64,000 nucleotides of DNA from Caldicellulosiruptor naganoensis (GTDB taxonomy: Bacteria > Bacillota > Thermoanaerobacteria > Caldicellulosiruptorales > Caldicellulosiruptoraceae). Under the pieces are notes generated by a model that made no database searches, was not told the origin of the DNA, and worked only from the letters and a program-made list of their open reading frames with translations. Where the stretch lies: contig NZ_CP113864.1 of assembly GCF_026914285.1 (NCBI RefSeq), forward strand, positions 1,767,001 through 1,831,000, written 5' to 3'. The position numbers and the translations under genes were made by a program. Positions 19,222 to 28,586 of the stretch are shown piece after piece; within the stretch, counting starts at the first letter, position 1, and each line of letters starts with the position of its first letter.

Positions 19222-19660
19222 TTAAACTATATCCCTTTTTACCCTCATCAAACTATTGAACAAAAACGGCAGCAGGAAAAATGCAAGCAGAACAAGGCCT
19301 ATCACAACGCAGATTGAAACCTGCATAAGCGTTAAAATCCCAGATGGTAGCATTGCTGCAAATGTGCCTGCTAAAATTAACCGCTGATGTTACAACATGA
19401 CCAATGTTTGCCGAGGTAAGCTTTAGTGCTTCTGAAAGCTCTAAATTTCTATATTCGTAAAACCTTATCAGTAAAAATACGCTGTAGTCTATACCCAAAG
19501 CTGAGAACACAACAAATGTGAAAAATGGTACTGCCCAGTTGAGTGCTTTGTACTTGAATATTCCTTTGAAAATCATCTCTGCTATTGAAAGATAAACATA
19601 ATACTTAGCAAAAACTATTACCAGAAATACTTCAATAACGAAAATTAATTTTGAAAATAT
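19222..19660 (-). pseudogene. 3' remnant of a second MMPL/RND transporter gene
   Basis: Aligns with the last 115 or so codons of the intact transporter at 25472-28552. The frame NWAVPFFTFVVF and LGIDYSVFLLIRFYEYRN is kept until a 2-base deletion near 19379 relative to the intact copy (ATTAACCG against ATTATCACCG), after which the frame is lost. The sequence still matches down to the old stop at 19224-19222. Upstream of about 19580 similarity decays quickly. No start or N-terminal domain remains. Confidence 0.85.
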
Positions 19661-19673
19661 TTAATTATTTTCT

Positions 19674-20471
19674 TCATTTAGATGAAAACCTTTCACTTTT
19701 GATAAATAAAAATTGAACAGTAAACATAAAGATTAAATAACTCAAAAGTATAAAAAATGATCCTAACAGCGAATTATATGCTTGATTCTCAGGAACTACT
19801 ATTATGCTTCCATATTTTAAATTTTTAAAAAATCCATTTAAGAAACCGTATATATTAAATATAACCAAAAATTTTATACAAAAGACATTGATGGAAAATT
19901 TATGAATTGCTGGTTCAAAAAATATCAGAAATAAGGGTATACTTAACGAATAAACAAAATTCTTAGTTAACAGATGTAACGTATATGATAAATTTCCCAC
20001 CAAATATAAACAAAAAACAACACTAATTAATTGTATAATTAGTTTGTACCATGGTAAAGTAATAGCAATTATAATTGCATCAAAAACCACACCCAAAAGT
20101 ATAGAAATCAAACTGAAAAGTAAAGAATACCAAAATATTGTAAATTGCTTAAGTAAAAAAAAGTATTTTCTTTTCAGAATTGTAGAATAAATAAAGAGTA
20201 AATTTGCTTGGTATTCTCTATCACATATTAGAGCAGAAATAATTGTTATCGCTATACCGCCAATTAAATTACAATATAACAACAAACCTGATGCATAAGG
20301 AGAAAAAATACTATTTGAAGTTATGTTTCTATTTGTGTTTCTATATATCATAATCATTAGTATTACATAGAAAAAATATATTAAAAGAATAAGTTTAGAT
20401 TTAAACAGTTTTTTTATCTCAGATTCTAATGTTTTGAAGCTAATCACTATATCACCTACCACTCGTATCAT
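19674..20471 (-). CDS. ABC-2-type permease-like membrane protein
   Basis: 265 residues with about six hydrophobic segments, beginning MIRVVGDIVISFKTLESEIK, then a first membrane helix near residue 28. Strong features are CNLIGGIAITIISALICDREYQANLLFIY and a C-terminal PENQAYNSLLGSFFILLSYL. The pattern (first helix, extracellular loop, CDRE-type intracellular turn) resembles ABC-2 exporter permeases such as the one at 22835-23647. The degenerate IS110 element separates it from the rest of the ABC operon, so it probably belonged to that transporter as second permease. Confidence 0.75.
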   Translation of the reverse strand: MIRVVGDIVISFKTLESEIKKLFKSKLILLIYFFYVILMIMIYRNTNRNITSNSIFSPYASGLLLYCNLIGGIAITIISALICDREYQANLLFIYSTILKRKYFFLLKQFTIFWYSLLFSLISILLGVVFDAIIIAITLPWYKLIIQLISVVFCLYLVGNLSYTLHLLTKNFVYSLSIPLFLIFFEPAIHKFSINVFCIKFLVIFNIYGFLNGFFKNLKYGSIIVVPENQAYNSLLGSFFILLSYLIFMFTVQFLFIKSERFSSK

Positions 20472-20503
20472 ATAATCATCAAATCAATTAAAACTTCATA
20501 TCT

Positions 20504-20535
20504 CAATTGGTATATTTAATTATCAGTACCAATTG
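20504..20535. promoter_or_regulatory. Inverted repeat CAATTGGTA / TACCAATTG
   Basis: Perfect 9-base arms at 20504-20512 and 20527-20535, 14 bases apart, 33 bases upstream of the permease start. It could be an operator or part of the neighbouring IS end. Nothing else marks its role. Confidence 0.4.
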
Positions 20536-20762
20536 ATTACTGGAAATTCATTTTGATAATGCACCTTTCTTAAAACACTCACTTCTCAAAAATTGAATAT
20601 TAAAATTGACTGCTACAGTTTAAATTTGCCCTTTATCTTTGGTAAACTAAAATCAGAAAAAGTTTAAGCCTGATTTAGTTTACTTGGATATTTTTGATCA
20701 CCTCCTGCTGGACGTGCTTTGATATCTGCACGCCACAGCTTGAGAAAGACTTCAGCCCCAAA

Positions 20763-20901
20763 GGATTACATAAGTAATGTTTACTCGAAGGCTTAAGCAC
20801 TGGCAGTTTTCCACATCTGATTTGAGCATGTCAGATGTGTGCTACAGCATAAACTGCTCCGTAGCTCTAATATCGGCGAGGCTGCTATTGTTATGTAATC
20901 C
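20763..20901 (+). ncRNA. Candidate IS110 bridge-RNA region
   Basis: Nested pairing in the noncoding end just upstream of the transposase: outer stem GGATTACATAA (20763-20773) with TTATGTAATCC (20891-20901), inner stem GCAGTTT (20803-20809) with AAACTGC (20851-20857), apical stem CACATCTGA (20812-20820) with TCAGATGTG (20831-20839). All three are perfect. IS110-group elements are known to encode a structured bridge RNA at this position with two guide loops. I infer the identity from position and fold. The guide bases were not assigned. Confidence 0.55.
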
Positions 20902-20961
20902 CCAGGGATAAAGGGCTTAATACTTTTTCTTACCACTACTTGCAAAAAGGAGGTCTTCAAA

Positions 20962-22166
20962 TTGCCAAATACTTTAATCGTGGGCATTGATATCAGTAGT
21001 CAGTCAAATTCTATCTTCTTCCTCGATGATGCCGGTAATCACTTGATTAAAAACCTTTTTCCTTGCCTAACGATCAAGAAGGCGCTAACGAATTAATCAA
21101 AAGAGTTATTGATTGCCTCAGCCAGTATAATCTATCCTGTATTAAGTTTGGCATGGAAGCAACTTCACACTACGCTTGGCATCTGCATTTGTACCTTGCT
21201 TCTTCATCTGAACTGCTGCCATATCAACCAACTTTTTATGTTTTCAACCCAAGCATAGTCAAAGGCTTTAAAAAAATCTACACTTTCTTGCCTAAAACAG
21301 ATAGCATCGATGCAATTATCATCGCTTCAATAGCGTTAGGTTCAGTAAGTTAAATCCAACACCTTTGCCTGATTTTAAATATGCTGCTATTTAAGCGCCT
21401 TATCAGAATGCGCTATCATCTTGTTCACAATCTAACTCGCGAAAAAAACAGAGCTTCTTGCTCTCATATACCTTAAATTCTCTACTTATTCTCAAGACTG
21501 TCCATTTTCAGATATCTTCGGTAAAGCTTCTTGCGCTATCATCGAAAACTTTACACCTGACGATATCGCTTCTATGCCACAAGAAAGACTTAATTAAATT
21601 CGTATCCGATAACGGCAACAACAGACTCTCAGATGTTAATAAAATCGCTGAAATACTTAAAACTGCTGCTAATCGCTCCTTTAGATTACATCCTCTGTTG
21701 ACTGAGGCAAATGATTTAGCTTTGTCTATGACACTTGAAAACATTAGATTTCTGCAAGAACAACTCAAAAAACTTGATAAAGAAATCTCAAAACTTCTTA
21801 AAGCTTTCTCTCCACCATTAACAACCGTCCCTGGCATAGGTGACGTTCTTGCAGCTGCTATCTACGCTGAAATTGGTGATATTAAACGCTTCAAAAATGA
21901 AGCTGCTTTGGCAAAGTATTCTGGCGTGATTTGGACTCAGTACCAATCAGGCAACTTCAATGCCCAGGAAACTTCATTGGCTAAGTGTGGTAACCAATAT
22001 CTGAGATATTATCTTGTTGAGGCCGCTAACTGTGAACTGTAGCACACAGTCCGTTATAAAGCTTTTCACAACAAGAAGTTCTCAGAGGTGGACCTGTCAT
22101 CAGCATAAACGTGCCCTCGTCCTCACCGCAAGACCCTTAATTCCTCTGATCTTTGCAATGCTCTAG
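20962..22166 (+). pseudogene. IS110-family transposase, multiply frameshifted
   Basis: Starts at TTG 20962 after AAGGAGG. N-terminal DEDD/RuvC-like part: VGIDISSQSNSIFFLDDAG, then after a frameshift near 21060 FGMEATSHYAWHLHLYL and KTDSIDAIIIASIAL (acidic residues D, E, D, D retained). Further frame changes or stops occur near 21340, 21400-21560 and 21590. The C-terminal Tnp_20 region is readable: TTVPGIGDVLAAAIYAEIGD, KYSGVIW and, after more shifts, HQHKRALVLTARPLIPLIF ending at TAG 22164. It cannot produce an active transposase. Confidence 0.9.
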
Positions 22167-22225
22167 CCTTGGTCAAATATATCAAGAAAGAGGTGATGTT
22201 TACAATACTTAGTTAGTTCCAATTT

Positions 22226-22378
22226 TTTAATTTAATAATCTTCCTCAGATAAGCTGCCAGTTAAATTTTTCCATGCTGAGTGGCTCGGTATTTTATTGCC
22301 TTTTTCACTCTAATTATCTAAAAAAATTTTTTAAAAACCCCCTTGACATTATACCGTTTGTCTTAGTAATACAATACA
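22226..22378. other. Noncoding stretch between IS110 remnant and ABC operon
   Basis: About 150 bases without a supported gene. It holds a plus-strand promoter-like pair, TTGACA then 18 bases then TAATAC (near 22343-22372), and on the minus strand a TATAAT in the same place. Either may be left over from the region before the element inserted. Confidence 0.3.
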
Positions 22379-25471: not shown

Positions 25472-28400
25472 TTAAACTATATCCCTTTTTACCCTCATCA
25501 AACTATTGAACAAAAACGGCAGCAGGAAAAATGCAAGCAGAACAAGGCCTATCACAACGCAGATTGAAACCTGCATAAGCGTTAAAATCCCAGATGGCAG
25601 CATTGCCGCAAATGTGCCGGCTAAAATTATCACCGCTGATGTTACAACATGACCAATATTTGCTGAGGTAAGCTTTAATGCCTCTGAAAGCTCTAAATTC
25701 TTATATTCGTAAAACCTTATCAGCAAAAATACGCTGTAGTCTATACCCAAAGCTAAGAACACAACAAAGGTGAAAAATGGCACTGCCCAGTTGAGTGCTT
25801 CGTACTTGAATATTCCTTTGAAAATCATCTCTGTTATAGAGAGTGCAAGGTAGTAGTCGACAAAAACTATCACTACCATTATTGCAGCATTAAAGATTGA
25901 CCTAGAAATTAGGAACATGAGAATAAAGATGCTTATTATCATTATTAGTCTCAAAGTCTTAAAATCTTTAAAATAAATGCTCTTCAAATCATGGTTTGAA
26001 GATGATATCCCACCAACTCCTACCGACACAAACTTTGTGTTTATAAACTCTAAAGAGTTATTTAAAACCTTTTCCACATTATCAACAATATCAATTGCCT
26101 TGTTTGTATACGGATTTGTGTCAAGAATCAAGATTATCTTTGTTATTGTTCTATCTTTGTTCATATATGAATCTAAAGCCTTTTTGAAGCTACTGCTTTT
26201 TATAGCCTCTGGTGGGACGTAAAAGATGTTTGTTGTTTTGTATCCTTCAAAATAACCCTTCATACTCTGCATAGAATTAGCCATCTTGTTAAGTGCATCA
26301 GAAATCTGCAAAAGCGCTGATTTTAAGCTTGTAAACCCTGTCTGAAGTTCATCAACTTTTTTTAGAATCTGTTCTTTTTGTTTGTCAAATTCCTGAATTT
26401 TTGAATACATAAGGTTTACACCTGAGATTATTTGCTTTTGACCTTTGTCAATTTGATAGTAGCCACTTAGAACCTTCCCTTGAGCATCTGCAAGCTGTTT
26501 TGAAGCTGAAGCTATGCTATTCATAGAATTTGAAATAAGCTTCAGAGCTTTGTCAGCTTCATTTATCTGGGCTGAAATCTTTTCATATTCAGAAGAAAAC
26601 TCTTTTAACTTTGGAGCAAACTTATTTGCTTCAGTTTCAATTTTTGATAAAATCTCAGATGCCATAATATAATTGATATCCCTTGAGATTTCCGGATACT
26701 TATTTGAAAGTGCTTTTAAATTGTTATTTGCAGTATCAATACCCGTCAATAAAAGTTCAATTTGATTTACATCAAATCCCTGTAATTCAATTTTTATCTT
26801 ATTTATTGATCTTGTATACTCAGAATAAAACTCTTTAAATCCTTCAGACAGCTTACTGCTCCCAATTGAAAGCTTATTAAGACCATCATTTATCTTCTTA
26901 GAACCATTTAACCCCTGTTCAAATCCACTATTTAGTTTTTCCAAAGAAATTTTCAATTCATATACACCATTCTCAAGCTGTGAAATACCAGTTACAAGTT
27001 TTTGAACATCAAATTCTTTTGTTGACATACTTAAATTTTTGTTTATATTCTCAATTGCATTGTTAACTTTCAAAAGACCATCTCTCAAACTATCAATACC
27101 TTTTATAACAGTATCTGCTTGGTTTGACAAAGTAAATTGTTTTATAATCTCCCCTTGTGGTCTTGTGACTGAATACACATCTTTTATACCATTTTGCTTA
27201 CTCAATATTTCAGTTATTTTTTCAATGTCAGATAATGCGTCAGAAGTTGCTAAACTTTTATTAGATTTCAAATATATGGTAACAGGAAATGTCTTTCCGC
27301 TGCTGAAGTTTTTTGAAATTAAGTTAAATCCTTTTACAGATTTGTATTTTTCAGAAAGTTCGTTTAATGTGTTGAATGACAAATCGCCTCTGACTGATAA
27401 GAGAAAAGGTATTAAGATTAATATCATTGTTGTCAACACCACATAAGGATATTTAGTCGAAAGTCTTGCAGCAGTTTCCCAGAGTCTGCTATGGGTGTGC
27501 TGTATTTCTTTATTAAATGGCCAGAAAAGATTTTTACCAAAAATTTTGAGTACAGTAGGAACCAGTGTCAAAAGCACAAGTAAAAGCACAAGCACACTTA
27601 CTGCAATTGCTGACATTGCCTTGAAAAAGTTAAAAGACGCTGCTGCAAAAGCCGCAAAACCTGTAAAAACCGCAAGACAGCTAAATACCACTGTTTTTCC
27701 TGCTGTTTTAAACGTTGTTATTATTGCATCATCAACATCTTTCCCATTTGCAAGCTCTTCTCTGAACCTTGAAATAATCAATAGATTATAATCCGTCCCA
27801 ATTCCAAATAGGGATACAACTATAAATGTTCTTGTAAAAGTATTGATTGGAAAATTAAACTTATCTGCCAAATGTCCAACTATGCTAAGCGAAATTAAAA
27901 ACGAAACACCAACTGTTAAAAGTGAAACAATTGGTGTGATAGGTGAGCGGAAAACAAGAACTAACACAACAATTATAAATACAATAGTGATGATATCTGT
28001 TTTTTTAACTCCATCTTCTGAAGCTTTTACAAAGTCTTGGGTAATTAAATCTCCACCTGTTAGATACACTTCTAAACTCTTTGGTTTTTGAACAGAATCT
28101 ATAAACTTATAAATATCATTTCTTATTTCAATAATTTCTCTTCTTGACTTGTCTACTTGAATGCTTGCAAGGACAACCTTGTTGTTGCTTGATACGTAGT
28201 AGTTCTTTAACTCTGGATTCATAAAATGAGATGAAATATTTTCAATGTTGTATCTTTCTTTGCTATTGCCAAGTCCATAAATTATTTTCTTGATTGCTTC
28301 AATATCTTTATTCGAAAGACCATTTTTGTCATAAAATACAATTGCTATTGTTGAAAGCTTTTTATCCTTTGGCACTCCCTGATACTCTTTTTCTAATACT

Positions 28401-28552
28401 GCTGCAACTTGAGATGGGTATTCATGACCAATTTTAGGTTCACCTTTGAGTCGAACTATTTTATTTATATCTGGCATAGTAACTACAAATATAACTGTTA
28501 AAATTACCCATATAATAGTGCTTAGCCACGGACGTTTTAAAATTACTCTCAC
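25472..28552 (-). CDS. MMPL/RND-superfamily transporter with long coiled-coil extracellular domain
   Basis: About 1026 residues, twelve predicted membrane helices in two halves. Each half has an MMPL block: FGIGTDYNLLIISRFREEL near 255 and LGIDYSVFLLIRFYEYKN near 930, with the Asp-Tyr pair that carries proton translocation in the family. Between residues about 380 and 770 is a long extracytoplasmic segment with heptad-like helices and small-G spacing (GLNGSKKINDGLNKL, DKGQKQIISGVNLMYSKI), as in YhgE/YdgH-type proteins of Firmicutes. The GTG at 28552 fits GAGGTG better than the one at 28561. The promoter carries a tandem dyad suggesting TetR-type control. The cargo is unknown; lipids or exported peptides are usual guesses. 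Confidence 0.9.
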   Translation of the reverse strand: MRVILKRPWLSTIIWVILTVIFVVTMPDINKIVRLKGEPKIGHEYPSQVAAVLEKEYQGVPKDKKLSTIAIVFYDKNGLSNKDIEAIKKIIYGLGNSKERYNIENISSHFMNPELKNYYVSSNNKVVLASIQVDKSRREIIEIRNDIYKFIDSVQKPKSLEVYLTGGDLITQDFVKASEDGVKKTDIITIVFIIVVLVLVFRSPITPIVSLLTVGVSFLISLSIVGHLADKFNFPINTFTRTFIVVSLFGIGTDYNLLIISRFREELANGKDVDDAIITTFKTAGKTVVFSCLAVFTGFAAFAAASFNFFKAMSAIAVSVLVLLLVLLTLVPTVLKIFGKNLFWPFNKEIQHTHSRLWETAARLSTKYPYVVLTTMILILIPFLLSVRGDLSFNTLNELSEKYKSVKGFNLISKNFSSGKTFPVTIYLKSNKSLATSDALSDIEKITEILSKQNGIKDVYSVTRPQGEIIKQFTLSNQADTVIKGIDSLRDGLLKVNNAIENINKNLSMSTKEFDVQKLVTGISQLENGVYELKISLEKLNSGFEQGLNGSKKINDGLNKLSIGSSKLSEGFKEFYSEYTRSINKIKIELQGFDVNQIELLLTGIDTANNNLKALSNKYPEISRDINYIMASEILSKIETEANKFAPKLKEFSSEYEKISAQINEADKALKLISNSMNSIASASKQLADAQGKVLSGYYQIDKGQKQIISGVNLMYSKIQEFDKQKEQILKKVDELQTGFTSLKSALLQISDALNKMANSMQSMKGYFEGYKTTNIFYVPPEAIKSSSFKKALDSYMNKDRTITKIILILDTNPYTNKAIDIVDNVEKVLNNSLEFINTKFVSVGVGGISSSNHDLKSIYFKDFKTLRLIMIISIFILMFLISRSIFNAAIMVVIVFVDYYLALSITEMIFKGIFKYEALNWAVPFFTFVVFLALGIDYSVFLLIRFYEYKNLELSEALKLTSANIGHVVTSAVIILAGTFAAMLPSGILTLMQVSICVVIGLVLLAFFLLPFLFNSLMRVKRDIV

Positions 28553-28586
28553 ACACCTCACCTCTTTTTAAAATATTACACAGCCT

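What the first reader, a model, noticed from the sequence alone, without database searches (positions are those of the whole stretch)
20640..22250. Dead IS110 transposase with a still-foldable bridge-RNA-like end
The transposase has many frameshifts, yet three nested stems in the upstream noncoding end (20763-20901) are all perfect. Either decay is recent, or the RNA is kept because it can be used in trans by intact copies elsewhere.
Basis: partly seen in the sequence, partly recalled or inferred. Interest (0 to 1): 0.55.

Follow-up and report, generated by a model that had tools for sequence, protein, structure and literature searches.

The report
Dead IS110 that targets ribosome-binding sites
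This is a broken copy of a jumping gene that uses a small guide RNA to insert itself next to the start signals of other genes; the broken copy's RNA still folds but has lost part of its guide, so it is a fossil rather than a kept helper.

Summary
The boundaries are wrong. Comparison of 40 copies in the genus puts the element at 20464-22363 between CT cores, not 20640-22250. The RNA has IS621-type anatomy: a target loop (left guide UCACCUCCU, right guide GAGAAAG) and a donor loop. Two guides are backed by covariation: right target guide with target (5/5 against 3/33, p=1e-4) and left donor guide with donor end (three donor types). The target guide is the complement of the Shine-Dalgarno sequence: sites read ACCTCCT, and 20 of 30 have an ORF starting at Shine-Dalgarno distance on the other strand (control 0 of 37). 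The same target class recurs in relatives outside the genus. The element family is a new member of a known kind with an unusual target. Unexplained: recurrent complex replacement blocks shared among dead copies, and a relative with 12 near-identical copies that all carry a split transposase frame.

The parts
20464..22363 (+). complete IS110-family element (dead copy), from CGTATC... to ...GTTTGTCT
   Evidence: multi-copy comparison of 40 copies; coordinates; empty sites in two other genomes
20455..20463 (+). left target with left CT core (CCTACCACT); complement of a weak Shine-Dalgarno in front of the permease gene on the - strand
   Evidence: only 2 of 7 non-core positions match the copy's own left target guide
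20464..20961 (+). left end: non-coding region with the -10 half of a circle-junction promoter and the bridge RNA
20698..20706 (+). left target guide UCACCUCCU (complement of the Shine-Dalgarno sequence)
   Evidence: position as in IS621; target consensus; variants and their targets
20707..20739 (+). target-loop stem-loop
   Evidence: paired columns with changes on both sides in the alignment
20742..20748 (+). right target guide GAGAAAG (pairs CT core plus right target)
   Evidence: covariation with the first right-target base, Fisher p=1.1e-4
20786..20794 (+). slot of the left donor guide, here replaced and no longer matching the right end
20872..20880 (+). right donor guide AUCGGCGAG, fits CTCGTAT of the left end with the split pairing described for IS621
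   Evidence: sequence against the pairing scheme in PMC11208158
20946..20954 (+). transposase ribosome-binding site
20962..22212 (+). transposase pseudogene (start TTG), broken by a 1-base loss and several replacement blocks
21324..22174 (+). eight replacement blocks in the reading frame (21324-21336, 21386-21399, 21451-21465, 21574-21588, 21851-21871, 22028-22048, 22084-22104, 22158-22174)
22213..22363 (+). right end, with TTGACA (22343-22348) and the right CT core (22362-22363)

Best explanation
20464-22363 is an inactivated copy of an IS110-type (IS621-like) element. In intact copies elsewhere, excision would join right and left end, the joined ends would form a TTGACA-N17-TATAAT promoter, and the transcript would contain a bridge RNA whose donor loop pairs with the joined ends and whose target loop pairs with ACCTC-CT-TT, the complement of the Shine-Dalgarno sequence. 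The element therefore inserts, in a fixed orientation, at the upstream edge of ribosome-binding sites and leaves the Shine-Dalgarno and the gene intact (shown by the sites; the pairing is inferred from covariation and analogy). The window copy went into a weak such site in front of an ABC-transporter permease gene. It is now inert: its transposase is broken in many places and its RNA has lost the left donor guide. The stems persist because they are inherited and have diverged no more than neutral DNA.
For: Boundaries from 40 copies. Natural empty sites: the joined host flanks align without a break over 1008 bp in G001 and G007. Target: of 38 distinct sites, core C 36, core T 37, first right base T 30 or C 8. 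Guide match 4.1 of 7 against 1.64 at shifted positions (28 sites). Right guide covaries (5/5 against 3/33, p=1.1e-4; permutation p=0.004, 38 copies). Shine-Dalgarno context: 20 of 30 sites have an ORF of 60 or more codons starting 8-19 nt inside; controls 0 of 37 right flanks, 190 of 1100 random positions. Same target class outside the genus. Left donor guide covaries with the right end: CGTTTG, CGCTTG and CGTATG types; the RNA of L098 was seen and its CGTATG end was read only afterwards. Window left donor guide lost, one of 7 of 39 copies, all 7 with a broken transposase, while all 14 full-length copies keep it. Structure with pair changes on both sides. Match to solved IS621 and ISCro4 recombinases. 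No intact recombinase in the genome. RNA core 3.0% against flanks 2.0-2.4%.
Against: The permutation test for the left target guide alone is borderline (p=0.054), and the window's own site matches its guide at only 2 of 7. The window-specific compensatory pair (1 A-U against 26 G-C) hints at upkeep of the stem. The same-site comparison is imperfect because the G008 copy resembles another copy in its genome (31 differences) and may have been converted. 10 of 30 sites lack a clear gene start. No RNA or transposition data. Exact CACCTCCTTT occurs only 9 times in the genome (reversed control 3), so the element uses partial matches. The G005 result shows that broken frames need not stop amplification.
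Confidence: 0.82

Rival explanations
1. One reading: the RNA of this dead copy is maintained because intact copies use it in trans.
For: Stems intact, target guides and right donor guide intact, compensatory pair in the outer stem. IS110 guide RNAs work in trans in published assays (passages of PMC11208160, and PMC11187229).
Against: Left donor guide lost; no intact recombinase in the genome; no lower divergence than flanks; the junction promoter is not formed in the inserted copy.
Confidence: 0.06
2. Shine-Dalgarno preference comes from the recombinase or from open DNA at gene starts, not from the RNA guide.
For: Left-guide permutation is only borderline.
Against: Right-guide covariation p=1.1e-4; copies with C-rich left guides sit at C-rich targets (L051; L073, L074, L075; but not L014, L053 or L072). 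Guides are in the IS621 positions.
Confidence: 0.07
3. The folded left end is only a 5' leader that controls transposase translation (its CACCTCC can pair with the transposase ribosome-binding site), not a guide RNA.
For: The minimum-energy fold of 20640-20965 pairs these two stretches; sRNA control of an IS110 transposase is known for ISPpu9 (passages of PMC8450116).
Against: Covariation of two loops with donor and target DNA. Both roles could coexist.
Confidence: 0.05

Closest known systems
IS621 (IS110 group) and its bridge RNA
   Same: DEDD recombinase with C-terminal Ser domain, CT core, long upstream non-coding end, short right end, junction promoter with 17-nt spacer, target loop before donor loop, split right donor guide with G opposite T
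   Different: Targets Shine-Dalgarno complements instead of REP sequences; left end about 500 nt with some 220 nt before the target loop (IS621 left end 191 bp)
ISEc21 / seekRNA elements (IS110 family)
   Same: Upstream non-coding region, circle with junction promoter, RNA works in cis or in trans (passages)
   Different: Other target; much shorter RNA suffices there
IS4321/IS5075 and attC-targeting IS1111 elements
   Same: RNA-family transposases that choose repeated functional sites; the neighbouring 'IS-B' behaves like them by sitting at the left junction of this element
   Different: IS1111 group has the non-coding region downstream; this element has it upstream

Membership tests
IS110 family, IS110 group | DEDD (RuvC-like) and Transposase_20 domains | tested here: met
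   Pfam on window fragments; IS621 and ISCro4 hits with the family profile
IS110 family, IS110 group | long non-coding left end upstream of the gene, short right end | tested here: met
   498 nt left, 151 nt right
IS110 family, IS110 group | dinucleotide core at both ends, no longer target duplication | tested here: met
   CT cores in nearly all of 39 copies with both ends; empty sites
IS110 family, IS110 group | sigma70-type promoter formed only at the circle junction | tested here: met
   TTGACA-N17-TATAAT in the intact type; in the window copy TATCAT at 17 nt, TATAAT at 22 nt; not tested for activity
IS110 family, IS110 group | bridge RNA with target and donor guides | tested here: met
   right target and left donor guides by covariation, left target and right donor by fit for the family
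functional bridge RNA (window copy) | left donor guide matches right end | tested here: not met
IS1111 group | non-coding region downstream of the gene with subterminal inverted repeats | tested here: not met
   non-coding region is upstream
autonomous element (window copy) | open transposase frame | tested here: not met
IS110 family, IS110 group | RNA expressed and transposition RNA-guided | not testable with these tools
   no expression or activity data

The most novel reading that the evidence does not exclude
A lineage of IS110 elements carries in its bridge RNA a mimic of the 16S rRNA 3' tail and so treats ribosome-binding sites as a genome-wide address, sparing the genes it joins. Copies with a broken transposase frame can still spread (by a helper in trans, by joining two half-proteins or by recoding), as the 12 near-identical split-frame copies in G005 suggest, so that in this genus the RNA end and not the transposase can be the unit that spreads.
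Probability: 0.3. Interest if true: 0.7.

Novelty: new member of a known kind. Interest (0 to 1): 0.45.

Why it matters
Natural bridge RNAs are known to address repeated sites such as REP sequences. A clade that addresses the Shine-Dalgarno sequence shows a general way to gain many safe targets, gives a natural reprogramming series (guide variants with their targets), and offers a direct test of how IS110 elements affect expression of the genes behind them. For the window finding itself the lesson is sober: intact stems in a dead IS110 do not mean a kept RNA; the guide slots must be read.

Tried and rejected
Rfam: no bridge-RNA family matched; the only hit (S15 leader, 20.7 bits, gathering 39.5, E 0.14, other strand) is chance.

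16S rRNA 3' end: I wanted to compare it with the guide, but no 16S was found in the genome (RF00177 0 matches; exact 15-mer 0 of 12 genomes), so rRNA seems withheld or absent there; the likeness of the guide to the 16S tail is recalled knowledge, not a result.

Blocks aimed at conserved residues: 20 of 30 residues hit are invariant, p=0.067, not significant. Blocks as hairpin-templated changes: total arm length exceeds shuffles (60 against 47.3, p=0.0015), but two blocks carry it and the test was chosen after seeing them, so it stays a lead. I also thought of simple local inversions; only some blocks fit by eye. Outgroup dead copies carry plain 1-2 base indels instead.

Counts dropped: for the left-target test 8 copies whose left flank is another IS, 2 same-site copies, L003 (no pattern match) and L011 (no right end) were left out, 28 of 40 remain; for the right-target test 38 of 40; for the gene-start test 30 of 40. 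The right-target count still holds the two same-site copies. A first fuzzy search timed out. One genome-contig scan leaves out records near the window's genome.

Literature: no paper on an IS110 element aimed at Shine-Dalgarno sites turned up (open-access library only); 'Shine-Dalgarno' occurs 0 times in PMC11208160, and the one 'ribosome binding site' in PMC11187229 is about a cargo gene. (listing only) gave no description of this element. Supplementary data were not read, so the target may be tabulated there.

Full report
What was checked. The window lies in a 2.49-Mb single-contig genome. The 1611 bases of the finding match themselves, and one deleted remnant near 440 kb in the same genome. 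In 40 relatives plus the own genome, 26 of 41 have a match; in the genus 10 of 12 genomes match the non-coding end, with many copies in G005 and G007.

Boundaries. I aligned the flanks of 40 genus copies (two of them in the own genome). In the window this is 20464-22363, between CT cores at 20462-20463 and 22362-22363. In G001 and G007 the host DNA is uninterrupted: the joined flanks align over 1008 bp at 78.8% and 78.6%. G008 has a copy at the same site (L032).

Anatomy. The gene starts at 20962 behind a ribosome-binding site at 20946-20954. In full-length copies the protein has 431-435 codons between stops, and the family profile matches the solved IS621 and ISCro4 recombinases. The right end has TTGACA, the left end TATAAT; joined in a circle they form a promoter with a 17-base spacer in the intact type; the window type has TATCAT at 17 and TATAAT at 22. 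The non-coding region folds better than shuffles, and 27 distinct RNAs from the genus and from relatives share two loops with pairs that change on both sides.

Guides. Using the IS621 scheme (passages of PMC11208160 and PMC11208158), the first loop has UCACCUCCU on its 5' side and GAGAAAG on its 3' side; the second loop has, in intact copies, CGUUUG on its 5' side and AUCGGCGAG on its 3' side. CGUUUG equals the right end. In relatives with right end CGCTTG the slot reads CGCUUG; with L098 the slot reads CGUAUG, and its right end, read afterwards, is CGTATG; L080 has the same end with one mismatch in the slot. AUCGGCGAG fits CTCGTAT of the left end with two unpaired bases and a G opposite T, as described for IS621. 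The right target guide covaries with the first target base: guides with G there have C in 5 of 5, guides with A have C in 3 of 33 (Fisher p=1.1e-4); shuffling targets among 38 copies gives p=0.004. For the left guide the mean match is 4.1 of 7 against 1.64 at shifted positions; shuffling among 28 copies gives p=0.054, because most guides are alike.

Target. Over 38 distinct sites the consensus is (A)CCTC-CT-T: core C 36, core T 37, next base T 30 or C 8. That is the complement of the Shine-Dalgarno sequence. Reading away from the element on the other strand, 20 of 30 sites have an ORF of at least 60 codons that starts 8-19 bases inside, mostly 13-16; right flanks give 0 of 37 and random positions 190 of 1100. 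Relatives in other genera, among them Thermoanaerobacter wiegelii (named), sit at sites of the same kind. The insertion leaves the Shine-Dalgarno next to its gene and puts the element in front of it. At the window site the gene is the ABC permease read from the - strand; the site CCTACCA-CT is a weak match (2 of 7).

Is the RNA kept? The slot of the left donor guide is replaced in the window copy, so the RNA cannot pair with the element's right end there. The same replacement is in 7 of 39 copies with both ends; all 7 have a broken transposase, and all 14 copies with a full-length frame have the slot intact. The own genome has no intact recombinase: PF01548 1 match, the window copy; PF02371 3 matches, the window copy, the remnant and a 24.6-bit fragment. 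Against the G008 copy at the same site, the RNA core differs at 7 of 230 (3.0%), left end 8 of 216, flanks 19 of 799 and 16 of 796, and the reading frame at 110 of 1248 (8.8%). So the RNA is not better kept than host DNA. It is the reading frame that is too different for one common insertion, which points to exchange between copies; the G008 copy is close to another copy in its genome (31 differences), and this also limits the comparison.

Blocks. The lesions are mostly not point changes but about 15 short replacements, usually one or two bases longer than what they replace, shared in changing combinations by dead copies in different species: 13 in L007 and L032, 11 in the window, 10 in L014, 0 in 13 full-length G007 copies. 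Copies at one and the same site carry different sets. Exchange among copies can spread them; what made them is open. Dead copies in other genera show plain small indels. They do not hit invariant residues more than chance (p=0.067).

G005. Twelve copies at twelve sites, ten identical and two with two differences, all have the frame split into 267 and 205 codons by one block; no full-length copy is present. They must have spread with a split frame, or been made alike afterwards.

Verdict. An ordinary dead IS110 copy, in a family with an unusual and well-supported target. The mechanism is that of IS621; the pairing is inferred, not shown by experiment.

Noticed in passing
G005 loci L034, L050, L052, L054, L056, L058, L060, L062, L064, L066-L068: 12 near-identical copies at 12 sites, all with the transposase frame split 267 + 205 codons and no full-length copy in that genome.
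   Followed up: partly
window 20746-20891 and 21324-22174; L007, L032, L013, L014 and others: About 15 recurrent complex replacement blocks, mostly net +1 or +2 bases, shared mosaically among dead copies of different species; some make perfect small hairpins.
   Followed up: partly
L099-L104 (G005), L105 (G009): A second IS110/IS1111-type element (444-447 codons, non-coding region behind its gene) sits exactly at the left junction of this element; in 4 of 6 fetched G005 cases its far side shows the Shine-Dalgarno complement, so it seems to have inserted into the junction.
   Followed up: partly
window 20698-20706 and 20946-20954: The target guide can pair with the transposase's own ribosome-binding site in the predicted fold, a possible self-control of translation.
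   Followed up: no
window 19253-19576: A fragment of a transporter gene that resembles part of the large gene at 25472-28561, apparently a degraded duplicate.
   Followed up: no
L078 (JAOAJI010000023.1): A contig filed under a Micrarchaeota MAG carries a copy with 99% protein identity, most likely a contaminant contig.
   Followed up: no
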